Assembly: GCA_029204225.1 (NCBI GenBank)
Contig: CM055111.1
Location: forward strand, 43,836,815 to 43,900,814
From: Diphasiastrum complanatum
Taxonomy: Eukaryota; Streptophyta; Lycopodiopsida; Lycopodiales; Lycopodiaceae
Direction: 5' to 3'
Length of the DNA stretch: 64,000 nucleotides
The notes beneath the pieces are model-generated. The model was given only the letters and a program-made list of their open reading frames with translations. It was not told the origin of the DNA and made no database searches. A program made the translations under genes and the position numbers. Positions 30,236 through 50,200 of this stretch are shown in pieces. Within the stretch, counting starts at the first letter, position 1. The number at the start of each line of letters is the position of its first letter.

Positions 30236-30608
30236 TTGAAAAATGTGGATGGAAAGAATCCTTATTACTCATTATTTAATGGATATTGTGTTAGGAGTAG
30301 AGGCAAGTTTGATAGAAGATCTAGAGAAGCTCTTCACATTATCAAGATGAATGTGTCTAATGATCTCTTCAAGGATATTGGGGTTGCTACTACAACAAAG
30401 TATGCTCGGGAGAGTCTTCAAACAACTTATGAATCAAAGACTACTTCAAGGATGTTGACCTTGAGGACTCAAATCAATCAAAGGTATAAGCTTGATTTGA
30501 TGATGAATCCACTCATGCTTTTGTACTTAGAATCAAATCTTACAATAGTGAGCTAGATTGTATGGTTGATGCTACCAAAGAAAAAGAAATTGTATAGGTT
30601 CCCCTTTT
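30236..30608 (+). pseudogene. Ty1/copia gag fragment, 5' part, interrupted
   Basis: Coding-like sequence with the copia gag (UBN2) pattern: KYARESLQTTYESKTTSRML, then after a frame break STHAFVLRIKSYNSELDCMV. It is cut at 30609 by the young LTR element. With one TTTTT removed, the reading frame passes from VPLF straight into GFGHSYKYIF at 36316 and on to 36429, which proves the insertion. Confidence 0.75.
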
Positions 30609-30609
30609 T

Positions 30610-31474
30610 TGTGAAATTTCAGAGAAATAAAGACCAAGAATGGATCTACATCAGATCCTCAAGAGGTTTTGGAAGCTAGATTACATGATCTACTAATCAA
30701 CCAATGATTAGATCTAGAATTAGATCAATTCCCCATCAAAAATCTAGCAAGAACAACAAGCAAATGATTAAACTTGAGACCTACTGCCTTCACACGTGTG
30801 AAGAACAGTACCTGTACGGAATTACAGCAGAGAGTGAAGTACACAAGTGTTAGAAAGCAATAGAACCATAAAATCACAACACAAATATGAGAATACTCAA
30901 GATATGCCTCCAAAACCAAGATCTTGCCTCATTGATTTCTCAAAGTGGATCCATCATGGATTAAATACAAAAATCATCATACTCTCTCTCTAAGACACTT
31001 CCAGCACGTGTGAGACAGGTCATAGTGCTTATCCATATCCACTTTGGCTAAGATTCCATTAATTTGCCACATCATCATTGGTGGCTAGTGTTGACCTTCT
31101 AGATTCCTACAAATTAGGAGATAGGTCCTACAATCTAGGAGATTTGACTTTTGACATGTATGAAATCTATATACAATGGATCTGAACTTTCTATATGATA
31201 TTTCACACGTGGGAGACCACTCCTACCCATGTGATATAGCATTTTCTACCACTAGAATGGTGCCAAGTGTCATAATACTACTAAACTAGTTTTTGGCCAA
31301 TTTAGCCACTAGTTTCCAATTTAAATGATATGTACAACATTTATGATCTATCTAAATGACTTAGGCATAGATTTCACACGTGGGAACAGGCTCCACACAT
31401 GTCTAATGATGATAGGTACAAGTCATTATGGTATTTACAAGATTTAACCAAGTTAGCTTTTGCCAATTTTAACA
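30610..31474 (-). repeat. 3' LTR of the young element
   Basis: The same 865 bases as the other LTR; I found no difference on line-by-line reading. CACGTG cores lie at 30793, 31005, 31206 and 31377. The palindrome CTTCACACGTGTGAAG is at 30788-30803. Confidence 0.95.
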
Positions 31475-31489
31475 CTCCTCCTCAAAACT
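31475..31489 (-). promoter_or_regulatory. Polypurine tract of the young element
   Basis: Minus strand TTTTGAGGAGGAG directly precedes the 3' LTR. It is the plus-strand primer for reverse transcription. A similar TTTTTTGAGGAGGAA occurs at 47275-47289. Confidence 0.85.
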
Positions 31490-31591
31490 AACTTGATACA
31501 TCTATGGTACATCTATTTACAACACTTAAGGCTGATCATTGCAGGTTCATAGGTGTGAAGATCATCCAATGAGTTTGATGAAGATCCAAGA

Positions 31592-33607
31592 TCACCATAT
31601 CCATGATAGTGCCTCCTTGATGTTGACTTCTTTGATGAACTTGAGAGCTTTGCACCACTTGATCACTTTTTCCATTGATTTGTTCCATCCTTGAAACATA
31701 TGGTTGATCCAAAAGCTCAAAAATAGCTGAAATTCCATGAGAAAATAAAGAGTCCTTCTTGACTCATAAGGATCACAAAGATCCAACATCATGTTACCAA
31801 GATCTCGAGAATTTGGCTCATCAACATTGGCAAGACTATGCATGCTATAATAACCAAGAGTTCGCATCATATCTTCATGCTTGATTTCCATTCTAATCTC
31901 AGATCTAATGAGGCTAAATACTTTATTATGGAGATAAGTGTCCTTAGAGGATGATTCACTTACTCTCATAAAGAGTTTACAATTTGCCTCAATACATGAA
32001 AAAAGACAAATTTTCATACTATGAATGAGCAAATCACTCTTGCTCTTGCAAGATTCAAGAGCATACATTTGATGAAATAACCATTTGCTTTCTAATTGAT
32101 CTAAAATCAATTTGAAATCATTAAGAACATCAACTATGTTCTCAAGAGAGACACCATACTCAACTAGTATTGCTTTACTCCAACTTTGAGTTGCAAAAGT
32201 CTCACCAAAGCAAATTGATTCACCAAATGACATATGAGAAGAAAGCATAAGATCTATACCACTTGAAATGTGCTCCTCTTTCCCTTGAAATGTGAGCCAT
32301 ATGAGCTCAACCATGTCTCTTGATATTCTTCTTGGAATCATAACTTGAGAAGGACTCTCCTCCTCAATCCTTGGCACACTTGAACCTTGAGATGACTCCT
32401 TAAGATCAACTTCTTGGTGCTCCTCCTTGATGAAAATCCGAGACCTCCATGTCTCATAATGATCACAATAAACATGACCATACATTGTGCACTTTCTATG
32501 ATCAACAATATTACTTATGCTAGAACCATAAGTCCAAAAATCACCACAACTTGACATGATTTTTCTAATATTGAAATCAAGAACTATTTCCATCTCAATA
32601 AGGCTAACTACTTGCTTATGGATATAAGTGTCCACTTTGGATGCTTCACTTATTCTCATAAGAAGTTTACAACTTGCCTTTAAAATTGAAAATTTACAAC
32701 TTTCAACATTATGAATGAACAGATCATTCATGATCTTATTGAAAGCAAAAGAAAATACATCATGAAGACATTTCCATTTCCTTGTCTTTATACTCAATGT
32801 AAGTTTACAAGGAAAACATGCTTTGCTATCTATTAAGGCATCACACTCAACTAGTATTGCCTTAATCCACATTTGAGATACAAAAATCTCTTCAAAGCAA
32901 AATAGTTCTTCAAAAGATGTCATGAGAGCATAAATGGAACTATTTTCATTTTGTGATTGCTCCTCCTTAATTTTGCTTGGTTTCTCTTGGATCATAACAA
33001 TAACTTTGAACTTATCCAAAGTTCCAAACAAAATGCTTTCCAAGAACATGAAATAAATCCAAGTGACATTCATGAAAGAAACATCTTTCTTTGCATCTTG
33101 AACCAAACAATGCACTTCCAAATGAAAAACTTCTAGAGGTTTGAAATGTGTGGTGATGGATTTTTGAAGACAACTCTTGTAAGTCCTTGTGAGACTCCAA
33201 GCCTCATGCATCTTTCCACAAAGGAAACACATTTCCTTAGATTTGTCCTTCTTGCCTTTGCATTTTGCACTTGAATCTCCATCCTTCACCTCGGCCCCCT
33301 TGCTTTGGTTCTCCTTGGATGGATTGGTCTTCATTTTGTAGCATCTTGAGACAAAATGATCTCTCTTGCCACAAAGGTTGCATTTAGGATCCTTACTTGC
33401 CTCCAATAGGTTGCCACCTATTGATGCCATGATGAGGAAGTAAAACTTTGTGATATGACTTTTCAAAATGTAATTTGTGACTCTCAAGAAACTAGATTTG
33501 AACACATTCAACAATCTAGAAGGATCTACACAAGACAAATTTTGAATCATATCTCTTTTCAACCTAGTCAATTGGAAACTAATTTTTGCTTTGATCACTA
33601 AGACCAA
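31592..33607 (-). CDS. Gag-like protein with a duplicated unknown module
   Basis: An open frame of 671 codons with no stop. Met60 (MASIGGNLLEA) is the likelier start, since copia gags begin this way (compare MATSGGFVLE at 39322). A CCHC knuckle, CNLCGKRDHFVSRC, lies at residues 76-89; a second half-motif, CFLCGK, is at 127-132. Next to the start the usual gag core is missing, as if deleted. From about 229 onward two diverged copies of one module follow: 229-395 and 459-624. Shared points are FCFEEIF/ICFGETF, KAILVE, SCKLLMRISEAS/NCKLFMRVSESS, DTYIHKQVVSLI/DTYLHNKVFSLI and DHYETWRSR/DPYESRRTL. I do not recognise the module. The knuckle suggests binding to the element's own RNA; the rest is unknown. 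A degenerate copia pol origin is not supported by any motif. Confidence 0.82.
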   Translation of the reverse strand: MVLVIKAKISFQLTRLKRDMIQNLSCVDPSRLLNVFKSSFLRVTNYILKSHITKFYFLIMASIGGNLLEASKDPKCNLCGKRDHFVSRCYKMKTNPSKENQSKGAEVKDGDSSAKCKGKKDKSKEMCFLCGKMHEAWSLTRTYKSCLQKSITTHFKPLEVFHLEVHCLVQDAKKDVSFMNVTWIYFMFLESILFGTLDKFKVIVMIQEKPSKIKEEQSQNENSSIYALMTSFEELFCFEEIFVSQMWIKAILVECDALIDSKACFPCKLTLSIKTRKWKCLHDVFSFAFNKIMNDLFIHNVESCKFSILKASCKLLMRISEASKVDTYIHKQVVSLIEMEIVLDFNIRKIMSSCGDFWTYGSSISNIVDHRKCTMYGHVYCDHYETWRSRIFIKEEHQEVDLKESSQGSSVPRIEEESPSQVMIPRRISRDMVELIWLTFQGKEEHISSGIDLMLSSHMSFGESICFGETFATQSWSKAILVEYGVSLENIVDVLNDFKLILDQLESKWLFHQMYALESCKSKSDLLIHSMKICLFSCIEANCKLFMRVSESSSKDTYLHNKVFSLIRSEIRMEIKHEDMMRTLGYYSMHSLANVDEPNSRDLGNMMLDLCDPYESRRTLYFLMEFQLFLSFWINHMFQGWNKSMEKVIKWCKALKFIKEVNIKEALSWIW

Positions 33608-35438
33608 AGCACTCTATCAAATCACAAAAATCAGATTCAAACACCCCTATTGGACTCAACAAACACCAATGACTCTTTCTTTTGAGAGTTGGAATGGATT
33701 TGAAAAGATTTGACTCCTAGATTTTTCTTTTCTCTTGACTAGTTCACTCAACTTTTGATATTCTTGAACAAAGGATGGGTTTTGTTTCAAATACTTGAAA
33801 ATCAAACTCAATCACTTCTTTTGGACTCACTCTTGACCCAAATAATCTCACTCTTAAGATTTTGATTGAATTTGATTTGATTCGACAACAAATTAAACCA
33901 CTAACTTTCACAAAAAAAAATGATCTACACTAGATCACATAAACTTGACATGTATACTTGATTCAAACACACAAAGATCAGATCCAATCACGCCTTTTGG
34001 AATCCTCTTGACCCAAATAATCTCACTCTTGAGATTTGGAATGGACATGAAATGGTTTGATAACAATCTATGTCAATAATTTTTCACCAAGCTTAAAAAT
34101 TAGACATCTAGAGATTCACAAAGATCCCAACCATGTATGAACACTCAAATATGGACTCCTCCTTGTTCTATACTCCCAATGGGATCACAACTTGACCCTC
34201 ACCCTCTCACAAAGAAAGTTGAATTAGAACTTATTTGAGTTTCATACATACAATGTCAAATTGTGCTCAAAAATTGAATTCATTCACCCCTATTGGACTC
34301 CACCAAGTACCAATGACTCTACCTCTTTAGAGTTGGAATGAAATTCAAAAATGTGATACTTCTCTCTCACTAAGATATGTGCTTACAAAGAGCTAATGCC
34401 ACTTAGCAAGATTTGATCACAATGAAGGAGACAATTTTTCCACCAAAGTCAAGAAATGAGTTACTAGAACTTGCCCTCTACAAAGGAAGGAACTCTTAGG
34501 ATTTTTGGATCAAACACTACACATGTGACTTACACACCTCTATGACTCTCTTTCAAGCCAAACAAAACTCAACTCTTTGAGTAGGAGTGGAACAATGTGA
34601 CTTAGATCTCAAAAATCACTTCTAGAACTCTCCAACAATGCTTATCACTTGTATTGGTAGATTTTGCCTTTATGAGTGTTTGTGCTCTAGAAATTCACTT
34701 AAGATTTCACTTGGAGGACTTATCCAAGGCTGACTTCTAGCACTTAGATGCTTCTAGTCTCAACCCTTTCACTCTTGAACACATCTAGAGTGAAGATACA
34801 ATGGATTTCAATCTCTTCCCTTGCAAATCACTCCTTAATCTATGGTTTTTGGCAATCTTTCACTCTCAACTTTAATGCACACCCAAAGCATATGAAGATC
34901 AGCTTTAATGTACTGTAATAAAGATTCAAATCATCTATATGATTGATCTATACCAAGAACAAATCAAAGGAATAGAAACAATGCATTACAAAGCTTGAAA
35001 AATGCACTAGATTGACTAGTTTTGGGTGTATGAGGCATTAAATGCACCAAAACTGAATTTTATTGCTCATAACAGGTTATGTACGGCCTCACACGTGTGT
35101 TAAGTACACATGAAGCCCACAAAAATATTTGGTACAAATATAATGATTCTATCTATCTATTCAAACTCGCTACCTCAAGATTAGCTAGTTTCCAAAAAAC
35201 CTGCTAGTTTGGGTGTATGAGTAAGATATAGCATCAAACTGAAAAATATAGCTCCAAAACTGGTACTGTACGTCCTCACACGTGTGAAGAGTAACCCTGC
35301 ATCCCACAACCAAGTTTGATGCACAAATATCAAGGCTAACTAACTCTTCAAACTCGCCCACTCAAGATTAGTGAGTTTTCTCAAAAAACTTGCCAATCTG
35401 GGTGTTGTTTAGATCAATGCTTTAATCTCTTGTACTTG
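33608..35438 (-). repeat. Long leader of the young element with diverged internal repeats
   Basis: About 1.8 kb between primer site and ORF holds no domain. A block with CCTATTGGACTC, ACCAATGACTCT and AGAGTTGGAATG recurs at about 33640 and 34290. A related block with TTGACCCAAATAATCTCACTC recurs at about 33830 and 34010. A weaker relative is near 34540. Two further CACACGTGTG sites are at 35092 and 35279. Confidence 0.65.
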
Positions 35439-35450
35439 GCTCTGATACCA
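35439..35450 (-). promoter_or_regulatory. Primer-binding site (tRNA-iMet) of the young element
   Basis: TGGTATCAGAGC on the minus strand directly abuts the 5' LTR, a perfect match to the initiator tRNA-Met end. It fixes the element's orientation. Confidence 0.93.
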
Positions 35451-36315
35451 TGTGAAATTTCAGAGAAATAAAGACCAAGAATGGATCTACATCAGATCCT
35501 CAAGAGGTTTTGGAAGCTAGATTACATGATCTACTAATCAACCAATGATTAGATCTAGAATTAGATCAATTCCCCATCAAAAATCTAGCAAGAACAACAA
35601 GCAAATGATTAAACTTGAGACCTACTGCCTTCACACGTGTGAAGAACAGTACCTGTACGGAATTACAGCAGAGAGTGAAGTACACAAGTGTTAGAAAGCA
35701 ATAGAACCATAAAATCACAACACAAATATGAGAATACTCAAGATATGCCTCCAAAACCAAGATCTTGCCTCATTGATTTCTCAAAGTGGATCCATCATGG
35801 ATTAAATACAAAAATCATCATACTCTCTCTCTAAGACACTTCCAGCACGTGTGAGACAGGTCATAGTGCTTATCCATATCCACTTTGGCTAAGATTCCAT
35901 TAATTTGCCACATCATCATTGGTGGCTAGTGTTGACCTTCTAGATTCCTACAAATTAGGAGATAGGTCCTACAATCTAGGAGATTTGACTTTTGACATGT
36001 ATGAAATCTATATACAATGGATCTGAACTTTCTATATGATATTTCACACGTGGGAGACCACTCCTACCCATGTGATATAGCATTTTCTACCACTAGAATG
36101 GTGCCAAGTGTCATAATACTACTAAACTAGTTTTTGGCCAATTTAGCCACTAGTTTCCAATTTAAATGATATGTACAACATTTATGATCTATCTAAATGA
36201 CTTAGGCATAGATTTCACACGTGGGAACAGGCTCCACACATGTCTAATGATGATAGGTACAAGTCATTATGGTATTTACAAGATTTAACCAAGTTAGCTT
36301 TTGCCAATTTTAACA
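35451..36315 (-). repeat. 5' LTR of the young element
   Basis: On the minus strand it starts TGTTAAAATTGGC and ends GAAATTTCACA. It contains four CACGTG cores, one of them within the 16-base perfect palindrome CTTCACACGTGTGAAG (35629-35644). Confidence 0.95.
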
Positions 36316-36431
36316 TTTTTGGCTTTGGACATTCATATAAATATATTTTTCAAACTTATTTCATTCAAAATGACCTACCCACCTCGGAAAATTTGCAAAG
36401 TGTCTTGGTTTATAAGGAGCATCAAGTATAA
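36316..36431 (+). pseudogene. Copia gag fragment, 3' part of the interrupted copy
   Basis: It continues the frame broken at 30608 (GFGHSYKYIFQTYFIQNDLP) to a TAA at 36429. The TTTTT at 36316-36320 is the second copy of the target duplication. Confidence 0.65.
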
Positions 36432-38716: not shown

Positions 38717-38720
38717 CACA

Positions 38721-38732
38721 TGGTATCAGAGC
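38721..38732 (+). promoter_or_regulatory. Primer-binding site (tRNA-iMet) of a gutted copia element
   Basis: TGGTATCAGAGC follows AATTCTTCACA, a typical LTR end. The gag stub begins 590 bases downstream. Confidence 0.8.
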
Positions 38733-39321
38733 TCTTGTGTTGTAGGTTATGGAAGTACAACCACATTTAGCAAAGATTTGGAGGAGCTTCTATCTCTACT
38801 AGAGCATCTAGAATAGTTTCTACTCAAAAATCAAGAATTTTGCATGTGTAGAATTGATCTTTTGTAGGTCAAAACTCAATTTAGGTTTATGAACTTGAAG
38901 TAGGCCGATTTCACACATGTGTAACTGGAATTGGACGATTTTAATTGCATTTGGAAAGCTTCATTAGAGGTACAAGATTCTATATCAAGATTTTTGCAAT
39001 TGCATGTAGAATTTGAAAGATTCAATCTTTTGTGATTTTCTCAAAACCCTAATTCTGATTGGATCTCTATTTTTTGAAGTTTATGGACTTTAATAGAGCG
39101 TGTTTCAATCTTAGAAAGTAGCAAGATTCATTATAGTGTGTGTGGATCATAGGTTGATCAAAATTTCTTCATTCTATGTGTTGATTTGCTAGTGATAAGT
39201 GCTAAAAAGAATTAAGAGTTTCCATATCTTTGTGATTTATTTTTGAATACATTTGTTGTCATTCAAAAGAGTGCTTTGAGCATTGGAACAGGTTGAAAGG
39301 AGAAGGTGAGGCCACTTCAAC

Positions 39322-39531
39322 ATGGCTACAAGTGGAGGCTTTGTGTTGGAGATCAATGATAGGCTTACCTCAATCAATTATTCTACTTGGAAGGTGAGGA
39401 TGGAGTCAGACAAGTTCAAGGGCAAAGACAAAGGCAGATCAAAGGGTCAAGACCAAGGTGAGCCTTTCTCTTTTGTTAGTAAGAAGAAAGATAGGTCAAA
39501 GTTAAAATGCTTCTATTGTGGAATGAAGTAA
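39322..39531 (+). pseudogene. Ty1/copia gag stub with internal deletion
   Basis: The first 28 residues (MATSGGFVLEINDRLTSINY, then STWKVRMES) are a clear copia gag start. The frame then jumps to the basic linker before the nucleocapsid and enters a zinc knuckle (CFYCGMK) that breaks off. Most of gag is missing. From 39532 the sequence belongs to an antisense frame. Confidence 0.85.
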
Positions 39532-41117
39532 TCAAAACATCATTCATATTATCAACGTGCAAACGGTGCAGATTATCAACATTGCAATTGATGTCTGTCA
39601 GCGCATTTATACCACAAGAAATTATATGTGGTTTGATACAAAATGACGTCTACTTATCAGCGATCATCGCTGGTTACTTGAGGAACGATATGATTCAAGC
39701 CATTTTGCAAAGTTTGTCTAAGAAAGGTACTTCTAATAATACTGTAGTCTGTAGTCACAACATGACTGAATCAGTTCGAAATAAAATTATTGTAGCATTT
39801 AATCGTGTGCATATTTTCAATCTCAAAGTTACAAAGCACGTCATAGGGAGATAGGACCAGCCGAATGTGATATCATGAAAAGAGTCGTGAACAATACCAA
39901 ATAACTGTAGCAAAATGTGAGCGTAGAACTGCTTCACATGGATAGTCTCAAAAATCCTATTACGATAGCATAAGGTAAAAAAAAGCTTCCCCTTGTTGCT
40001 TCTAGTGCTGAGTTGTAGTCGGACGACTGGATTTGTGACGATCTTCCTATTTTCCTCAAAACCCTGCATCCATATTAATCCCTGAAGAAGTTTAACTTTT
40101 TCACTGGTAGATCACTTTTTGAGCTACTGCCTTGTTCATCACTTCCCTAGTGGTAGTAAATTTTTTTTTCTTATACATGTCTTGCCCAGAAATGACCAAA
40201 GAAGGGTTGTTGAGATTAAATGAGCCACTTCTTTTATTGGAGTTTTGGAAGTACTTTGTCTTGAAAAGTGGAAAATCTAGGTCTTTTTAGGAGACGTTCG
40301 ATTTTCCGAATATGTTTGGCATCACCTAGGTTGGCAAGTAGTTTGGTATTAGGATCTTTGTATAACTCAATAGAGGCATCAAGCATGTGGGGCGGATGAA
40401 TAAGAAAGCAAGGTGGGCTTTGACTACATCTCTAGTCGGCTTGTGTAGCCAAACGAAAAAGGCATTGGCTTGATTTTGCAGAGAAACATCGGAGAAGAAT
40501 TTGTTGAGATTATTCATCATGAATCAAACTGCGTGGTCAAACCAAATAACAGAAGAGCTACTCTTGCATTTTTTACCACAATGACACTTGAAGAAGGGTC
40601 TTTTCCATTTCCATATGCGGGCTTGTTAGAGATGCATACGGTTGAGACCAGTTTCAAAGTGTCCTCTGACCTTGACCCAAGTTTGCTCGGAAGAACAACG
40701 TGAAGGCTCAAACTTGTTCATTCGTATGATGGTATCAAAAGCAATAGGAGTCTCTAGAGAAGAGTTTTTATGCAGAGCAGCAAGTTTACAGGTTTGTACT
40801 TCTTTCTGGGTGAGGTGAGTAAGCAAGGTTCAAAGTTCAATAGGTATGTGGGCAAGGAAATTCACAGTGGGGAGGCTCCAGAGTTTGAAGGAAGTAAGGG
40901 CAGATTTGAATTCAATTGTATTGCTGGGGACCATAGGGATTCGGCAACTTTTGCATTGGTAGAATTCGTAAGCAGATTGGTCACCAATGTCACAAATTTT
41001 CTGGGAGAATTGCTCAAGCTGTGATGCGCTATCCTCATCAAGATCATCAACAAAGACAAGCAGGTGTGGAGATAAAGGTGCATGAAGGAGTGGCAATCTT
41101 AGTAGAAGCAGTACCAT
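39532..41117 (-). pseudogene. Decayed antisense coding sequence of unknown identity
   Basis: On the minus strand one frame runs from about 41117 to 40070 and continues after a frameshift to about 39532, some 530 codons in all. Stops are few relative to the length, and many are single-change stops (TGA 40832-40830, TAA 40628-40626, TGA near 40524). Protein-like stretches lie between them, such as CDIGDQSAYEFYQCKSCRIP, FKCHCGKKCKSSSS, NAFFVWLHKPT and FEENRKIVTNPVVRLQLS. The three stretches at 40830-41117, 40626-40826 and 40326-40520 share one frame, which chance would not give. I recognise no family. It sits between a copia gag stub and a copia RNase H tail, in reverse. It may be captured host coding sequence or an older element. 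Confidence 0.6.
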
Positions 41118-41179
41118 TTTCTTTTTCTAGATATTCAAAAACTTTTCTGATGTGTGAGTTAAAAAACCTCTCCTCTTTT

Positions 41180-41358
41180 TGAAATTTTTTCGCAAGCGTG
41201 GAAGAAGGTGCAAGCCAAGGAGATCAAGCTCCATCATGTGTCATCATCCTAATGTGTTGATGATATTTTAACCAAACCATTGCCAAACGACTCATTTAAA
41301 AAGTTGTGATATGCACTTGGTGTTGTAGATAGATGTACACTAGATTTGCCAAGCTAGA
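41180..41358 (+). pseudogene. End of Ty1/copia RNase H
   Basis: Reads VQAKEIKLHHV, then VDDILTKPLPNDSFKKL and YALGVVDRCTLDLPS with one stop. This is the standard copia pol C-terminus. The LTR at 41366 begins eight bases later. Confidence 0.82.
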
Positions 41359-41365
41359 TTTTGAG

Positions 41366-41950
41366 TGTTAAAATTGTCAAAATCCTAGCTTTGATCTATG
41401 ATTATTTGTGTATAACTTGATCCCACACGTATGGAGCTTGTTCCACGTGGATGTTAGGCCTAAATGCATTTGTTTCTAGTTAGATAGAAAAAGTCTTGAT
41501 TGACACACGTGTGAACTAGTGAAAAGCTAGTCAAGCTGAAAATGGTTATTTGGCACCATATTACTAGTTGATCAAGCATACCCATGTGAATAATGGAGGC
41601 TTCCCATGTGTGAGAGGCTATTCCCATGTGTGTACATATTTGGAAAATATCAGTAAATAATCGTAGGAGTTGATTTTGCAAATTCCTAAATGTTAGGAAA
41701 ATTACCTCAAATCAAGGAAAATCATGGTGAGGCAATGGCATCAATCTAGGAATCAAAGATGTGGGTGCTTATCTAGCATTGATTGGTGGATCTGAAGTGA
41801 TGTGGCATTTCCCACACGTGCCAGGCCTGCTGAGTCAACATATCAGGTCGAAATGTACTTGATCTATATATAGATCATCATTGTGAATATCAAATTTGAT
41901 GAGAGATCTTGATTTTGAGACAAATCCATGTTGTTTTCACCATTTGTGTT
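41366..41950 (+). repeat. Diverged LTR related to the young element, part 1
   Basis: Starts TGTTAAAATTGTCAAAA, like the young element's LTR in its own orientation, and follows the copia RNase H end. It contains CACACGTATGGAG, CCACGTGGATG, CACACGTGTGAAC and CACACGTGCC. The LTR is split at 41950 by the chromovirus and continues at 46991. Confidence 0.78.
41883..41950 (+). repeat. 68-base direct repeat, left copy
   Basis: Identical to 46923-46990 (begins GTGAATATCAAATTTGATGA). It belongs to the diverged LTR and is duplicated around the chromovirus insertion. Confidence 0.95.
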
Positions 41951-41955
41951 TATAG

Positions 41956-42333
41956 ATGTTAATGTTAATGTTTATAGATGGGTTACCAAAAGATTATCAA
42001 GTGGATGTTTGTAGGAACCATCCAAAAACCCTTGAAGATGCTATTAGGGCTGCAAAATACTTTGATGACACACCTAAGCCACCTAGGGGTCAACAGCCTA
42101 ATGAGCAGAAAAAAGGTTTTCAATTTAAGAGGAAGGATAGGGAAGTTGTTAATGAAACACATCCCAATTCCAACAATCCTAAGAAAAACAAGAAAAACTT
42201 TAAAAACCATCATGGTGGCAATGATAAAGCTGAAGCTCGTAAGAAGAACCTGTGCTTCAAGTGCAATGGCGAGGGTCACCTTGCACGTGATTGCTTCAAA
42301 AAACAAGCTTCAACCTCAAGTAATCTATCTTGA
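41956..42333 (+). pseudogene. Chromovirus gag, C-terminal part
   Basis: Starts in gag (LPKDYQVDVCRNHPKTLEDA, IRAAKYFDD), runs through a basic linker and ends with a CCHC knuckle, CFKCNGEGHLARDC, at about 42253-42294. A TGA at 42331-42333 closes it. The N-terminal capsid part is lost to the truncation. Confidence 0.9.
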
Positions 42334-42971
42334 AGAAATGAGATGGATGTTTATTTCCTTAGTTTTTGGTCCTAATGACCTTATTTGCATTAAAGGTAAA
42401 ATTAATGATCAAGTTGTTAATGTTCTTTTGATACGTGATCCACTCGTAACTTTATTAATGTAAATTTGGTGCAACGCTAAACCTTCCTACTTGAATAAGT
42501 GAGAAAAAATACCGTGTGACAATGGCATCGAAAAGTAATTCCGATTTGATGGATTTTATTAATCCTGATGTAGAATTACACATCCAGGATTATTCTGAAA
42601 AACTAGAATTCCATGCTGTTCAATTAGCTAATGTAGATATTGTTCTTGGGCAACAATGGCATTTTGATAAGAACAAATCATTGAGAATTGATTTTGTTGA
42701 GAAATCTTTATCTTTTATGCATGAGAATTCTTTAATTAAGATCAAGTCTAGTTTAAGTGTTGACACTAAAAATGTTAACCCTTATTCTAAACGAGAACTT
42801 AATTCTATTATGAAGAATTCTGATTTTAAAGTTTATTTATGTTTTCATAATGATATCATTTGCTGCAATGATGAAGAACTTAACATAAATGCCATGAATA
42901 TTTCAGTGAGAACACTACAAAATTTGAAGCCTATAATGAACTTAGGCAGGAATTCAATGATGTTTTTTTAG
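42334..42971 (+). pseudogene. Chromovirus protease region, broken
   Basis: The active-site segment reads NVLLIRDPLVTLL near 42420, where a D-S/T-G triad is expected, so it is lost. The fold continues in another frame with EKLEFHAVQL and DIVLGQQWHF. A frame break near 42960 leads into RT. Confidence 0.72.
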
Positions 42972-44353
42972 ACCTTTCTGTAGGTTTACCACCAGAAAGG
43001 ACAGTTGATCATAAAATTGACCTAATTCCTGGAACAATTCCAATCGCACAGCGTCCTTATAGGATGAGTGCATCGGAAGAGGCTGAGGTAAATAGGCAAT
43101 TACATGATTACCTGAAAAAGGGGTGGGTACAACCTAATAAGTCTCCTTGGGCATCACCAGTGGTTCTGGTGGCCAAGAAGGATGGGACTATAAGGTTTTG
43201 TGTCGACTATAAGAAATTGAACAAGGTAACCGTTAAGAATAGATATCCACTGGCGCGGATGGATGATCTAATAGACTATCTTGGTGGTGCTGGGTACTTT
43301 ACCAAGATAGATCTAAGATCGGGCTACCATCAGATACGCATTAAGGCAGAAGATATACCAAAAATCGGGTTTCGAACTCGCTTTGGTCACTACGAATTTT
43401 TGGTGTTGCCTTTTGGTTTGACCAATGCACCGGCAACTTTCCAACAAATGATGAACGATTTGTTCAGGCCATATTTGGGAAGATTCGTAGTGGTATTCTT
43501 AGATGATATCCTAGTGTTCAGTAAGATTTTGGCGGAACATAAAGAGCATCTTAGGATTGTCTTGGACATTCTAAGAAGGGAAAAGCTCTTTGCCAAGGAG
43601 TCTAAGTGTGACTTTTTTGCTAAGGAATTGTCCTACTCGGGGCATAAGATTTCCGAACGAGGGGTGGAGATTGAGGCTGATCGTATCCAGAGGGTTATTG
43701 ATTGGCCTATTCTCACCACAATTCGGAAAATCAAGTCTTTCTTGGGGTTTGTGGGATTTTTCCGTTGGCATAATCCCCAATTTGTTAGATTGGCATTCCC
43801 CCTTACCCAGGCCTTGAAAGGCTATAAGAAGCTAAGCCGGAGGGCTAAGAGTCCACTAGTGGTGTGGACGGAGGATATGAATAATTGTTTTGAGTTGCTT
43901 AAGAAAAGTGTCACTTCGGCACCAATACTAATCATTGGCGATCCTAATAAGACTTTTGTGGTTAGGACCGATGCCAGTGATTATGCTATTGGAGCTGTTT
44001 TGATGCAGAATGGACATCCTATGGCTTATGAAAGCAAGAAACTCAATCCTGCTCAGTCTAGGTATTGTACCTATGAGAAGGAACTATTTGCAATTGTTCA
44101 TTCCTTGAAAATTTGGCGACATTATTTGTATGGAACCAGATTTGAAGTTTTGACGTATCATCAGACTCTTCGATATTTCTGTGATGCTACAGATTTAAAG
44201 GGGAGGCAAGCTAGATGGGCTGAGCTGATGCAAATCTTTGACTTTTTTGTACGTTATTGTAAAGGAAGTCAAAATACTCTAGCGCATGCTTTGAGTCGGT
44301 TACCGGTTATTAATCAGTTGTGCTTTACTGTTATAGAACTAGAGTTGTTTTAG
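42972..44353 (+). pseudogene. Chromovirus RT and RNase H, long open frame
   Basis: An open frame of over 450 codons. RT motifs: WVQPNKSPWASPVVLVAKKD, RFCVDYKKLNKVTVKNRYP, IDLRSGYHQIRI, LPFGLTNAPATFQQMMN and the intact catalytic FLDD (VVVFLDDILVFS). Connection and RNase H follow: SFLGFVGFFRWHNPQF, RTDASDYAIGAVLM, YEKELFAIVHSLKIWRHYL. Substitutions at normally conserved points (TYHQTL for TDHQTL, NTLAHALSR for ADALSR) indicate decay of RNase H. The element is cut off from a complete gag, so no function is expected. Confidence 0.92.
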
Positions 44354-44369
44354 TCTCTTCAAGGACTAT

Positions 44370-45338
44370 ATGAGTCCGATCCTTTTTTTTGGAAAGTATT
44401 GGCAACAAGTACTTTCGGAGGTCGATTCAGGTTTGCAAGATTCCTCAAATCAGGAAAAGACTGAAACAGATTATCCAATTCGAAACAGGATTTTGTTTCG
44501 TAAAGGAAAGGTGTGTGTACCGGAGAATGACACTGTGAGGGCCCAAATCTTGCATGAGTGTCATGATAGTCCATGCGCAGGACATCCGGGTATACAAAGA
44601 ACACTTGACTTAGTTCGAAGGCAATTTGGGTGGCCTAAGATGAAAAGTCAGGTAGAGGCCTATGTACTTAAATGTACTAAGTGCCAGTTAAATAAAGCAA
44701 AGAGGCTAAAAGCTAGTGGCCTATTACATCCTTTAGATATTCCTACCGGAAAGTGAGAAAGTATATCTATGGATTTTGTGGTCGGGCTTCCACGTACAGG
44801 GAAGGGCCATGATTCGGTTTGGGTCATTGTTGACAGACTTACGAAGTTTGTTCAATTTATCCTAACGAAAACTACTGTTAAAGCTTCAAAACTAGTTCAA
44901 TTGTTTGTTGAGAAGCTTTTTCGACTATATGGGCTGCCTTGCGATATTGTCAGTGACCGTGACCCAAAATTCACTGGGAATTTTTGGCAAGCAGTATTTG
45001 AAAAGTTGGAAACAACTTTAAGTTTGAGTTCTACAGATCATCCGGAATCAGACGGTCAAACGGAAAGGACCAATCAGACGATGGAGGATATGCTTCGAGC
45101 ATATGTGGGCCATCGGCAGTCTGATTGGGAATAGTACCTTCCACTGATGGAATTTGCATATAACAGTGCAAAACATTCAACGACTGGATTCAGCTCTTTC
45201 ATGCTTATGTATGGTTTTCAACCTCGATCACCAATTAGTGTTGGCATGAAAAACCTACGGGTGCAAGCCATAGCTGATTTCCTTGTGGATATGCAAGAAA
45301 TGTTACAGTTGGCTAAAGACAGCATAAGAAGTGCTTAG
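44370..45338 (+). pseudogene. Chromovirus integrase with in-frame stops
   Basis: The zinc-binding part has HECHDSPCAGHPG and CTKCQLNKAK. The core has the three catalytic acids in context: MDFVVGLPRTG, DIVSDRDPKFTG and PESDGQTERTNQ. Stops interrupt it at 44754 (TGA), 45132 (TAG, in place of Trp in DWEYLP-like context) and 45336 (TAG). The part at 45147-45330 is closely related to the scrap at 20580-20863. Confidence 0.92.
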
Positions 45339-45827
45339 GACAGGGCAAGGCACTATGCTGATCTATCTCGGAAGCACAAGGTATTCATGGTCAACGACTG
45401 GGTGTTTTTGGGAGTCCCTAGTCACTCCAGAGGCTTGAAAACTATTAAGTGTGCAAAGTTGACGCCTAGGTATTGCGGTCCTTTTAAGGTTATCCAAGTG
45501 ATAAACAATGTCGCATACAAACTAGACCTTCCAACTAACGTTGGAATTCATCCTGTTTTCCACGTTAGTAAGTTGAAACCCTCGTTGGAGGTTGGGGAGA
45601 CCCCGGTCCCTGTGGAAGACCTAGTGGAACTTCTTCATGATGAGTCCGTGAGTGGACCACCTGAACCCGAGGCGATTGTTAATAGCCGACAAAGAACTAT
45701 ACGGAGTAGAGTGCTTCGGGAATTTTTAGTCAGGTGGAGGGGCAAATCAGAAGAGGAGGATACATGGGAAAAGGAGACTGATCTCCAGAAGAATTTTCCA
45801 AATTTTTCCCTACAAGGAAAAATTTAA
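45339..45827 (+). pseudogene. Integrase C-terminus with chromodomain
   Basis: Continues integrase (KLTPRYCGPFKVIQVINNVA, HPVFHVSKLKP) and ends in a chromodomain: EAIVNSRQRTIRSR, then EFLVRWRGKSEEEDTWEKE. Chromodomains direct chromovirus integration to particular chromatin. It marks the element as a chromovirus. Confidence 0.92.
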
Positions 45828-45828
45828 G

Positions 45829-45843
45829 TTTAGGGGGAAGGAA
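45829..45843 (+). promoter_or_regulatory. Polypurine tract of the chromovirus
   Basis: TTTAGGGGGAAGGAA directly before the LTR start TGTTACATAC. Confidence 0.85.
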
Positions 45844-46922
45844 TGTTACATACCTATGTAACTAGCAGTACTTCAGACCCCTAATAGTCCATTTAGTGTT
45901 GGGGGCTAAATGGCAAGGTACCCTTAGGATTAAGGGTATGTGCCCTTGGATAAGGACAAGCAAGTGACTATACCTTAGTTGGAGGTATGAAGTCACGTGA
46001 TCCTTGGATAAGGGATACCCTTAGTATTAAGGATAGGTGTCTTAGATTAAGGTACTAGTGTCCTTGGTTAAGGACAGGTAGGTGTCTATACCTTGGATGG
46101 AGGTATGGAACCTAGTGAGGTGTTAGAAAGTCATTGGATGACTATTTTTCTAAACCTTGGGCCTCAACCTTGAACCATATTACTTTATTGGTCTAGGACC
46201 AAAGTATACTTGCACAACTTGGGCAATGGGACCTAGTAGGAGGGCGCCCTTCTAAAGTGTCCATTGAGTTCCCAACTCCCACAAGAAAGGCATTCAAAGA
46301 GTCATAGGTTATGGAAGGAGTCTCTTGACATTCCATAAGCCTATGGAGGCTCTTGGAGATTTTTTAACTCCCCTAGGCTTCTCTCTCTCTCATTGGATGA
46401 GCATGGAACTCCATAGTGCATTGGAGGGGTCCATGGGCCATCTATATGAGGGTAGTAGGGCGCCCATTGGGAGGGAGAGATCTCTCTTGTTTGCTTGGCT
46501 TATGCTCTAGTGTTGCTACTAGTGTGTAGAGTGCTTTCTTGTGGTAGTATGCTTGAGGTTTGGATCTTGCTTATGGTATGGGACATAAGTAGGGTTTGGA
46601 TCTTGAGAATGATATGGAGTGTTGTGGTATGCTTGTGATTTGTTTATGGTTAGCAAGGGGGTGCTAGATAGGTCTTGCTTGGAGCTCGGATCTAGCTATG
46701 GTTGGGTGGTGAATACTTGAGGCCAACTTGTTATCTATCTTTGTGTTTAAAGAGTAGGGACACAGGTGGAGGAGAGATCCTTGGAGGCTTGCAGATCCTT
46801 ACTTGCAGGTGGAGGCATCCTAGCTTAGAGTTGGGGAGCATCTTGAAGCTTGCAGGTTGCTTGAAGGACATTTGGAGGCTCTACCTTGGATTTGGAGGTC
46901 ATCCTCACCTCTACTTGTAAAA
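45844..46922 (+). repeat. 3' LTR of the chromovirus, 3'-incomplete
   Basis: Starts TGTTACATACCTATG. It contains internal repeats around CCTTGGATAAGG and TGGAGGTATG (45945-46110). It ends with TTGTAAAA instead of CA, at the edge of the 68-base duplication, probably at the end of R. Confidence 0.72.
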
Positions 46923-46990
46923 GTGAATATCAAATTTGATGAGAGATCTTGATTTTGAGACAAATCCATGTTGTTTTCACCATTTGTGTT
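46923..46990 (+). repeat. 68-base direct repeat, right copy
   Basis: Identical to 41883-41950. LTR sequence continues smoothly after this copy and before the left one, so this is a target duplication of unusual length. Confidence 0.95.
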
Positions 46991-47240
46991 GTGATTTTAT
47001 GCATTGAATGCTATCCAAAGGTAATGTACTTCACTCTCTGCCCATTGTCCATACAGTGACAAGTTTTCACACGTGTGAGGCCGCTCATCCACTTAAATGA
47101 CATGTTCTTCTTGCTAGTCAAGTGCATATTTTTCATTTAGATCAAGATGTAATCATTAGATTTGTGGATGATTAATCTAACTAGCTTCCAACACCTCGTG
47201 TGGATCGATTGGAGATCCATTTATTCCCTTGAAGTTATGA
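46991..47240 (+). repeat. Diverged LTR, part 2
   Basis: Continues the same LTR: GTGATTTTATG, GTACTTCACTCTCTGC, TTCACACGTGTGAGG and CTAGCTTCCAA(A/C)ACCTC all occur in the same order in the young element's LTR. The right end is approximate. Confidence 0.75.
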
Positions 47241-47274
47241 GTTATGCATAGTTTATCATAGTTTAATGAAGCTA

Positions 47275-47289
47275 TTTTTTGAGGAGGAA
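47275..47289 (+). promoter_or_regulatory. Possible polypurine tract before another LTR start
   Basis: TTTTTTGAGGAGGAA is followed at 47290 by TGTGAGAAAAATGC, and about 60 bases later by CCACATGTGTGGAGCAGC. Both resemble the young element's polypurine tract and LTR start. This may be a further, older family member. Confidence 0.4.
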
Positions 47290-47299
47290 TGTGAGAAAA

Positions 47300-50200
47300 A
47301 TGCAAAATATAGCTCAATTAAATTCAAATTAATGTACATAATGTCATTCCACATGTGTGGAGCAGCTTAAGCCAAACTTTGAAGGATGTTGACTTCCAAG
47401 AATCTAAGACTTTTCTTCTTATGTAGGAGGTTTTATGTTCACAAAATAGTAGTAGGATTTTAAAGAGCAAGTTTTCTAGTATACACGAATAATTGATCAC
47501 ACATTTTATAATGTACATCACATAAAATATTGATATTTGTTATTGAATGCATCCTAATTATATTCCATGGAGATCAAATTTTTTTGGAAAAAGTCCTAAA
47601 TAGTAACAAGAATTATATATATGTTGAAAGGCAAGCTAAAGACCATATTCAAACAAGGACACAAGATTGATAAACAAAATCACATTGAAATTTCGATGTA
47701 AAAGTCTATTCTCAATAAGTATTAAGGGGAAGAGAAAGAGTGAGACTTGAGGAAACAGTTGATAAGAAGAATCTTTAGAGCATTTGGACGTCATAGAGCT
47801 ATGCATAGTCTTGATGTATCTTGATTTCAAATTTTAGTTTTCTCACACAATAATTGATTAAAAGATTCAATGTTTTAAAGACTTTAACATACAACAATTG
47901 TGTGTTGTAGCAAAATTCGTTTTGCAATCTTCCAATGTGTCGAGCCTGATATTCTCAAAAAATGAGGTCTCAAATATGCTTTTTGGTCTCCAAGGGTAGA
48001 GGCTCAAACTTAGGATTGGGAAAACTTTGGATGTCAGGTTGAGCCAAGCCCGTTGGGTACTACATCTTAAGAGTCGAACTTAGGTAGAGTCTCCAACTCC
48101 ATAAAAACTTTGGATGTGAACCTAACCAATTAAGCCAACCCCCGTTGCGTAGCTCTCTAGAGTAGAAAGTGAGTTTTAGCATTGCTTGAAGTTTCAGCTA
48201 ATGCTAATGATGTAACGATGGCCGTTGGATGAACTCGAAAGTAGCCATTGGATGTACTTGGCTTTAATGAATCCTTAAATGTGAGCGCCGCACCGAAACC
48301 CTAGAATGGACCAACAAAGAGATAGCCTTCGACAGGAATGCTTCATGTTCCCTCCTATTTCAACATCGATCGATCGATCGATCGATCAATGGAGTGTGTA
48401 GAACTGTTCTCAGTAGTTTGAAGTTTGATGTGATACAGTGACATTCTTTGATGTTTTTCCCTCTGTTTCTTTGAAGTTGTAAACATTTAACACCCTATGC
48501 TTTTTGGCTAGTTTGCAAGACGCGAAGCATTAGGGTAGATAATTTATCTGACAGCCTTGGTTCTAGAAAACGATACTCGTGGTGCAATCAAAGAGATGAG
48601 ATTCGTTGTTCCTTAATATTGCAGAAAGTGCTATTGAGAATGCCTTTTAACTTAAGATACGATAAGGGTATGTTAGCATTGACTATTACCTTTATTGAGG
48701 TACCATTTACACTATTTGATTCTGACTTTTGCCTGCTTGACAAAAAATTCGTTTACGCATCACTTTATTTCTTCTGTCTGCGAACGCTATCTATAATCAA
48801 TTGCATTTTGTACAAACGCTGAAGATTTTTCATTCTGCACGGGATCAAACTGTTTCGTTTTGTGAAGCCGACACCAGAAATGCTAGTGGAAGGTAGTTTT
48901 GGAAACTTCTCTCTTTTTAGCAGTATCTCAAGTTTGTCCGATGATGCAAAAAAGTTTCTGAAGATCTAATAGATCTTAAGAGTGGTTGGTAGTCATTATC
49001 GCCCGTCGCGGCGTCCTCGCCTCTTCTTTCTCTGCCCATCTCTAATCCCTTCTGTTCAATCTCTGTTTTTCTCTGTTCTCTTCTGTCCGTTTTTGCCACG
49101 TCCGTCGGTATTGACTACCAATAACCACCGCTGATGCTTGAGCTATGAGAGCTGAGGACTATAGGTAAATTTGTGCATACGAATATGTTCTTTAAATCCT
49201 CTTATCACATCAAACATCGCAGTTCAATCTATCTGCTAAATTTTTTTATGGAATGGGCCAAATTTTTTTCTACTATGTTGTGTCTAAAAGTAATAGAAGC
49301 ATTTGAGTTGTAGTCTGGTTCTCCTGGTAGTTTCAGTCGATTTTGTAATTAGCTTAAACTTTCTTAAGATGATCTTTGGACTTAAGTTATCTGGTAAGAT
49401 TGTTGAGTATGAGCGGTGTTGACTCGAAAATCTGTACCGGATTGCATGTCTAAAAAACTGAAAAGGTTCATTCATGTAAGTCTAGCTACGTAAAGTGTAT
49501 CTCAAGAAAATAGCCATTTTGAGGAGCTTCATGAAATTTCTTTCAAAAAACGATAATTTCAATCGTTTGTATGTTCCTAGAATCCCTGTTCTTGTATTGA
49601 TGCATTTATTAAATACGCACCTGGTTCTATGAACCAAGTTCTTTGTATTTGTGCTGTGATCTGATGATCATTTCTAATGTGAGACGGATAACCACATAAA
49701 GGCACTTGTTACAGTAAGATTGTTGGAGTTGAGACATTCAGATTTCAAAGTATCATAACACCCACATGGCTGTTTCTATTCGCTCAAAATTCTGAAATAT
49801 GAGATTTCAAAAAACGGTTACTTGTTTTTGTGAAGCCAAAAAGTTTTACAATTACGGTGTATAACACAACACCTAAACCTACACAAACTCTTATACACTA
49901 AACGTATACAATCGTATTGACCTCGTAACCTAGACACAATTGTATCCAAAACGAAAAGTTGTTAAGATATGTCTTACCTAACAAAATATAAAATATTGAG
50001 TATTTTTAAGTCTATTTTCTTTTCATTCTTGTAAGAGATAGTTTCCATGCACACATTAATCCGGGGTTGTCTTATCAAGACCTATTGAGATCAGTGGTGA
50101 TTACTGAAATAGCGTGGGCGATCATAATTGAAATCACCATTGAAGGGCATTTTAGCCTTCAATTTCATTAGAGAATTTGATTTTGAAAGGAGTCCATGAA

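What the first reader, a model, noticed from the sequence alone, without database searches (positions are those of the whole stretch)
30610..36315. Very young non-autonomous LTR retrotransposon with intact signals and one long ORF
Two 865-base LTRs that I read as identical, a TTTTT target duplication, a perfect tRNA-iMet primer site, a polypurine tract and an undamaged 671-codon ORF, but no enzyme domains. Everything else in the window is decayed, so this copy moved recently and its family may still be mobile using a partner's enzymes.
Basis: partly seen in the sequence, partly recalled or inferred. Interest (0 to 1): 0.88.

Follow-up and report, generated by a model that had tools for sequence, protein, structure and literature searches.

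The report
Young non-autonomous Copia retrotransposon burst
This is a very recently inserted jumping element, probably of a plant genome, that has lost its own enzymes but still carries a long open reading frame, a worn-down remnant of its former gag-pol gene; many near-identical copies show that its family has just spread, presumably using another element's proteins.

Summary
30610-36315 (sense strand minus) is a complete Ty1/copia-type LTR element: identical 865-nt LTRs, TTTTT target duplication, primer site, polypurine tract, one long ORF. The genome holds many near-identical copies: 29 of 40 scored LTR matches are 100% identical and all 66 scored ORF matches are open. In 18 full-length copies the LTR pairs differ by 0-2 substitutions: a recent burst, not one stray copy. 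The ORF is a shrunken gag-pol: gag start, zinc knuckle, broken integrase piece, duplicated pre-RT/RT start; protease, RT and RNase H are lost, and two ORF parts stay unexplained. An autonomous Copia family (1327-aa gag-pol) shares primer site, polypurine tract, leader (70-77%) and palindromic boxes, but its LTRs are only about 66% alike and its sampled copies are older. Of 24 RT-bearing places compared, none with a recognisable LTR is closer, so the helper is not identified. No stops arose where roughly 5-20 were expected, so the frame was long kept open; tests for amino-acid selection disagree. Verdict: a real, young, non-autonomous Copia derivative, a new variant of a known kind.

The parts
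30610..36315 (-). whole element, sense on minus strand, 5706 nt
35451..36315 (-). 5' LTR (sense), TG...CA
   Evidence: 865/865 identical to the other LTR
30610..31474 (-). 3' LTR (sense)
30605..30609 (.). target-site duplication TTTTT, one side
36316..36320 (.). target-site duplication TTTTT, other side
35438..35450 (-). primer binding site TGGTATCAGAGCC
   Evidence: with the next 9 nt shared with L034 and L035, not with L036
31475..31487 (-). polypurine tract TTTTGAGGAGGAG
   Evidence: same 13 nt in L034 and L035; altered in L036
35204..35405 (-). leader unit, copy 1, with palindrome CACACGTGTG (CACGTG at 35279-35284)
35016..35216 (-). leader unit, copy 2, with palindrome (CACGTG at 35092-35097); the autonomous leaders have one such unit
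33617..34373 (-). expanded leader part: degenerate tandem units of about 170-180 nt, no match to the autonomous leader at E 0.01
31592..33550 (-). ORF from first ATG (652 aa), eroded gag-pol
33392..33436 (-). gag start LIMASIGGNLLEASK (12 of 15 aa identical to autonomous gag)
33338..33385 (-). gag zinc knuckle, CCHC ligands kept (10 of 16 aa identical)
33212..33337 (-). pre-knuckle linker and start of a second knuckle (24 of 42 aa identical)
32993..33211 (-). degraded integrase piece (24 of 70 aligned aa identical); the Asp of HSDVH reads Glu
32771..32992 (-). pre-RT/RT start, copy 1
32402..32770 (-). ORF part without match in gag-pol, copy 1
32060..32401 (-). pre-RT/RT start, copy 2
31634..32059 (-). 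ORF part without match in gag-pol, copy 2
31475..31634 (-). 3' end homologous (65%) to the RNase H end and PPT region of the autonomous element, mostly behind the ORF's stop

Best explanation
A non-autonomous Ty1/copia element derived from a gag-pol element by internal deletions and tandem duplications. It keeps the signals needed in cis (LTR promoter and ends, primer site, leader, polypurine tract), is transcribed from its LTR, has its RNA packaged, copied and integrated by Gag and Pol of a related autonomous Copia element, and has done so many times very recently. Shown: anatomy, homology, copies, target duplications, youth. Inferred: transcription, packaging and the identity of the helper.
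For: Identical LTRs and TSD. LTR search: 40 of 3701 first-look candidates scored, 29 at 100% over 865 nt, 11 just below. ORF search: 66 of 34009 candidates scored, all with 673-aa open frames and no stop. 18 full-length copies (window + 17 fetched): LTR pairs differ by 0 substitutions in 11, by 1-2 in 7 (one of these also by an 8-nt indel); 17 have 5-bp TSDs and one 4-bp. ORF segments match the 1327-aa gag-pol of L034/L035 in order apart from two duplications; Pfam shows gag, knuckle, Pol_BBD, pre-integrase, integrase, SH3-like and RVT_2 there (the integrase core of L034 just under its cut-off). PBS and PPT shared, leader 70-77%, palindromes 3-4 per LTR. No enzyme domain above cut-off in the window copy.
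Against: The three autonomous-type copies dated are older (LTR-pair distance 0.019-0.027; the 39 best other matches to one of their LTRs are 96-98%) and their LTRs are only about 66% like the element's, so no contemporary helper was found. No expression data. About 270 codons of the ORF have no known source.
Confidence: 0.87

Rival explanations
1. The open frame is kept because its product is used: a Gag-derived, zinc-knuckle protein that helps its own RNA into the helper's particles or competes with the helper.
For: No stop in 179 codon pairs of the internal duplication: neutral means 9.2 and 10.5 with 0 of 3000 runs stop-free each; with only half of the changes applied, mean 5.4 and 7 of 3000 stop-free. 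None in 321 codons aligned to gag-pol (mean 19.8, 0 of 3000). Older copy L058: ORF still 670 aa, 27/2001 differences against 40/1804 in the leader (Fisher p 0.048), ORF indels 9 and 18 nt, omega 0.32 (0.15-0.83), 12 synonymous changes where 7.7 are expected (reached in 264 of 5000 runs; 10 with another alignment). Gag start and CCHC knuckle retained.
Against: Between the two duplicated halves omega is 1.07 (0.69-1.64), and an alignment made on DNA alone puts only 424 of 585 columns in the same frame, with many gaps not multiples of three. Among 18 young copies N:S:stop = 24:3:0 against 21.0:3.9:2.1 expected. Changes shared by at least 2 of 5 older copies are 12 N: 6 S: 0 stops against 12.9: 4.4: 0.7; shared against private p 0.10. 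L058 alone is no evidence on stops (1508 of 5000 neutral runs had none). The leader has 18 upstream ATGs, the three autonomous-type leaders 1-2.
Confidence: 0.35
2. Only openness is selected: translation shields the RNA from nonsense-mediated decay or silencing, the amino acids hardly matter.
For: No stops together with omega near 1 between the halves; shared changes near neutral proportions.
Against: L058 comparison suggests some amino-acid constraint. Many upstream ATGs.
Confidence: 0.3
3. The frame is merely inherited: the element lost its enzymes recently from a closer, unsampled autonomous parent, so there was no time for decay.
For: Only 24 RT-bearing places were compared, of 150 scored and 83310 first-look candidates; 6 of them showed no recognisable LTR. 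A closer parent may be unsampled.
Against: The internal duplication, which includes sequence absent from gag-pol, has diverged by dS about 0.56, so the derivative state looks old, unless error-prone replication speeds change.
Confidence: 0.25

Closest known systems
LARD (large retrotransposon derivative)
   Same: LTRs, PBS, PPT, over 2 kb, no coding domain above Pfam cut-off (class rule from passages of PMC6022998)
   Different: Carries one long ORF of eroded gag-pol origin
TR-GAG
   Same: Single ORF with gag start and zinc knuckle; TR-GAG transposition in Arabidopsis ddm1 reported in passages of PMC8704663
   Different: No gag core domain is found; the ORF also holds integrase and RT-start remnants
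Autonomous Copia family of the same genome (L034, L035; L036 with one stop)
   Same: PBS and PPT (L034, L035), leader, palindromic LTR boxes, gag-pol pieces
   Different: 1327-aa gag-pol, LTRs about 66% alike, single leader unit, older copies
BARE-2 (parasite of BARE-1)
   Same: Non-autonomous Copia thought to use a relative's proteins (recalled; only mentions in passages of PMC6022998 and PMC8704663 were seen)
   Different: BARE-2 keeps pol and lacks gag (recalled)

Membership tests
Ty1/copia LTR retrotransposon | Two LTRs with TG...CA ends, TSD, PBS, PPT | tested here: met
Ty1/copia LTR retrotransposon | Homology of the coding part to Copia gag-pol (integrase before RT) | tested here: met
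Ty1/copia LTR retrotransposon | Complete protease, integrase, RT and RNase H | tested here: not met
   hence non-autonomous
LARD | LTR element of at least 2 kb without any coding domain | tested here: met
   zf-CCHC_2 and a C2 domain below cut-off, nothing else; but remnants are detectable with relatives
TR-GAG | Single ORF with a GAG domain | tested here: not met
   no gag domain; only gag start and knuckle remain
Sirevirus | Terminal PPT octamer AGGGGGAG 10 bp before the 3' LTR | tested here: not met
   PPT is TTTTGAGGAGGAG directly at the LTR; definition from passages of PMC2829016
Sirevirus | Multiple PPT copies and CGG-CCG repeated motifs | not tested
   not searched for
Trans-mobilised parasite of a named helper | A contemporary autonomous element with matching ends and leader | tested here: inconclusive
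Trans-mobilised parasite of a named helper | RNA packaged by the helper's Gag | not testable with these tools
   needs RNA and particle work

The most novel reading that the evidence does not exclude
A long-lived, defective-interfering-like retrotransposon lineage: it threw away its enzymes long ago, doubled the leader unit shared with the autonomous family (a candidate packaging or dimerisation signal with a CACACGTGTG palindrome that is invariant in the five units aligned), kept a Gag-derived zinc-knuckle reading frame open by selection, and now amplifies far more recently than the sampled autonomous relatives.
Probability: 0.25. Interest if true: 0.68.

Novelty: new variant of a known kind. 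Interest (0 to 1): 0.45.

Why it matters
Non-autonomous LTR elements are common, but a fresh burst with dozens of near-identical copies, older diverged copies of the same lineage and open-framed autonomous relatives in one assembly gives a natural test of what a retrotransposon parasite must keep: here leader, primer site, polypurine tract and, oddly, an open frame. It could make testable whether such frames are selected for their protein, for translation itself, or merely inherited.

Tried and rejected
Host gene capture: not supported, since much of the ORF aligns with Copia gag-pol; two parts (aa 282-404, 519-660) remain unassigned and a foreign source for them is not excluded. Orphan protein: the protein search found no relative at E 1 or better in 5.8 billion sequences, nor did viral or prokaryote contigs; this only reflects those collections and their word-based sensitivity. 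RNA families and tRNAs in the window: none. Structure: single-sequence AlphaFold model useless, pLDDT 33; no fold search made. Gag-start homology with window element B (39322) was not significant at DNA level (324 against a shuffle maximum of 328) and was replaced by the autonomous gag. L031/L032 'X' frames: not significantly related to the ORF at protein level, though short DNA matches at E 2e-7 and one long alignment above its 10 shuffles (747 against 604) hint at a link; unresolved, and the genome search meant for it did not complete. The 'knuckle' column is meaningless because of a fixed reading frame; only its palindrome positions are used. Empty sites: not searched.

Full report
The element. 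On the minus strand, 36315 to 30610, the order is LTR (865 nt), primer site, leader of about 1.9-2.0 kb, one long ORF, polypurine tract, LTR. The LTRs are identical (865/865), begin TG and end CA, and are flanked by TTTTT on both sides. The ORF is 673 codons stop to stop, 652 from its first ATG. In 500 first-order Markov sequences of the interior the longest frame was 223 aa.

The family. That it is a plant is inferred: named matches of a Copia integrase of the window are mostly plants, with two arthropods among them. Only best candidates are scored in the genome searches, so counts are lower bounds. Of 40 LTR matches scored (3701 candidates) 29 have the full score of 100% identity over 865 nt and 11 score just below. 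Of 66 ORF matches scored (34009 candidates) all cover residues 1-671 (one 2-671) at 99-100% identity, with 673-aa open frames and no stop. I fetched 20 places chosen from the LTR matches: 17 full-length copies and 3 lone LTRs with 5-bp repeats at their ends; two of the three share the same flanks, so may be one duplicated site. With the window that makes 18 full copies: LTR pairs differ by 0 substitutions in 11, by 1 in 5 (one with an 8-nt indel as well) and by 2 in 2, which is 9 in 18 x 865; 17 have 5-bp and one 4-bp target duplications; the ORF is complete in 17 of 18. These copies were picked by near-identical LTRs, so they are the youngest. With recalled plant rates of 0.7-1.3e-8 per site and year the mean age would be some 20-40 thousand years; the host's own rate is unknown. 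Most variable columns are private to one copy, as expected for a burst from one or few sources.

What the ORF is. Pfam finds only a sub-threshold zinc knuckle and a sub-threshold C2 match and protein collections give nothing. Genome relatives solve it. A search with an RT piece of L030 (150 scored of 83310) led to two copies with a 1327-aa open frame, L034 and L035, and L036 with one stop in gag. Pfam shows the Copia set from gag to RVT_2 in L034 and L035. The window ORF maps onto this gag-pol in order apart from two duplications: gag start, knuckle, pre-knuckle linker with a second knuckle start, integrase piece, pre-RT/RT start, an unmatched part, then again pre-RT/RT start and an unmatched part. 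The 3' end up to the polypurine tract resembles the RNase H end at 65%, mostly behind the ORF's stop. So it is an eroded, rearranged gag-pol, with about 270 codons unexplained.

Signals. The autonomous copies L034 and L035 share TGGTATCAGAGCCAAGTACAAG and TTTTGAGGAGGAG; in L036 both are altered. The leader matches at 70-77%. LTR identity is about 66% with gap-tolerant blastn settings and 78-79% of ungapped columns in a global alignment. CACGTG occurs 4 times per LTR and twice in the leader; first-order Markov sequences of the LTR gave a mean of 0.02 and never more than 2 (2000 runs), and the other 58 kb of the window hold 14, several of them in related LTRs. All 18 young copies keep all ten sites; the older copy L058 has only 7. 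The autonomous-type copies have 3-4 per LTR where complete, and one in the leader, where the window element has two, because a unit of about 187 nt is duplicated. A consensus fold of five leader units scores -27.1 against a best of -26.6 and z = -3.0 in 100 column shuffles, which is modest. CACGTG is the plant G-box (recalled), so the boxes may be promoter sites, RNA dimerisation sites or both; nothing here decides.

Is the frame selected? The ORF contains an internal duplication (protein score 328 against a maximum of 97 in 300 shuffles). Over 179 codon pairs dN/dS is 1.07 (0.69-1.64), yet there is no stop where neutral change predicts 9-10 (0 of 3000 runs stop-free in each direction; with half of the changes 5.4 and 7 of 3000). 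Against a clean in-frame history, an alignment on DNA alone keeps only 424 of 585 columns in the same frame. Against the autonomous gag-pol, 321 alignable codons give omega 0.33 (0.16-0.48), partly owed to the constrained partner branch and to choosing alignable parts, and no stop where about 20 are expected. An older copy, L058, found by a pattern search (LTR pair 8/855 different), still has a 670-aa frame; its ORF differs at 27/2001 sites against 40/1804 in the leader (Fisher p 0.048), with indels of 9 and 18 nt only and omega 0.32 (0.15-0.83); its lack of stops alone means little (1508 of 5000 neutral runs). Five further older places were read (5 of the 20 asked for, from 40 listed): one gave no ORF match, and the longest frames of the other four are 622, 252, 316 and 261 aa. 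Two of the four were compared over 1.2-1.3 kb only. Changes shared by at least two of the five older copies with an ORF match are 12 nonsynonymous, 6 synonymous, 0 stops against 12.9, 4.4 and 0.7; private ones are 150, 31 and 9 against 137.6, 40.9 and 11.6; shared against private p 0.10. In the 18 young copies it is 24 to 3 with no stop (expected 21.0, 3.9, 2.1). Eighteen upstream ATGs in the leader, against 1-2 in three autonomous-type leaders, speak against easy translation. I conclude that the frame was kept open over a long time; the reason is open.

The helper. Besides L030 and L034-L036, the 3' LTR regions of 20 more RT-bearing places (of the 150) were compared: 10 are of the L035 type (two of them over 81 and 457 nt only), 4 of another type about 60% like the window LTR, and 6 gave no match to any of the three LTRs tried; none is closer to the element over its length than the L035 type, though one short stretch reaches 80% over 226 nt and one 82% over 51 nt. 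The LTR pairs of L034-L036 differ by 0.019-0.027 and the 39 best other matches to the L035 LTR (40 scored of 3565) are 96-98%. So the sampled autonomous-type copies are much older than this burst, and the current helper is unknown.

Literature. Passages of PMC6022998 (classes LARD, TR-GAG), PMC8704663 (TR-GAG transposition) and PMC2829016 (Sirevirus motifs) were seen; other papers were seen as search listings with abstract starts only. None of those listings names this family; most subscription papers are not held, so this is weak evidence of newness.

Verdict. A real, very young, non-autonomous Copia derivative from a recent burst, with a shrunken gag-pol frame; ordinary in kind, unusual in keeping that frame and in its doubled leader unit.

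Noticed in passing
window 41883-41950 and 46923-46990: A Gypsy fragment (41951-46922) sits inside an older related LTR and is flanked by 68-nt identical direct repeats, not a short target duplication.
   Followed up: no
window 38720-41365, 41366-41950, 46991-47233: Older related Copia element on the plus strand (PBS, gag start at 39322, 3' LTR); the 39 other best genome matches of its LTR are 85-92% alike.
   Followed up: partly
window 47235-47363: A further polypurine tract plus LTR start, similar to the finding's, directly after the older LTR.
   Followed up: partly
window 51911-53821, minus: Open frame of 636 aa with no Pfam match, overlapping a second one (53662-54588), also without a match.
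   Followed up: partly
L024, L025, L026: Three lone LTRs identical to the window LTR; L025 and L026 share the same flanks in opposite orientation on one contig, a possible inverted duplication or assembly artefact.
   Followed up: no
L031 6314-7000 minus; L032 2380-2835: Two frames alike to each other (score 293 against shuffle maximum 62) with dN/dS about 1, in places that also hold gag starts fused to the knuckle; origin unknown.
   Followed up: partly
G000: Contigs C1-C23 reach tens of Mb in the coordinates seen, total 1.745 Gb; I suspect a lycophyte such as Diphasiastrum complanatum, from recall only, no call supports it.
   Followed up: no
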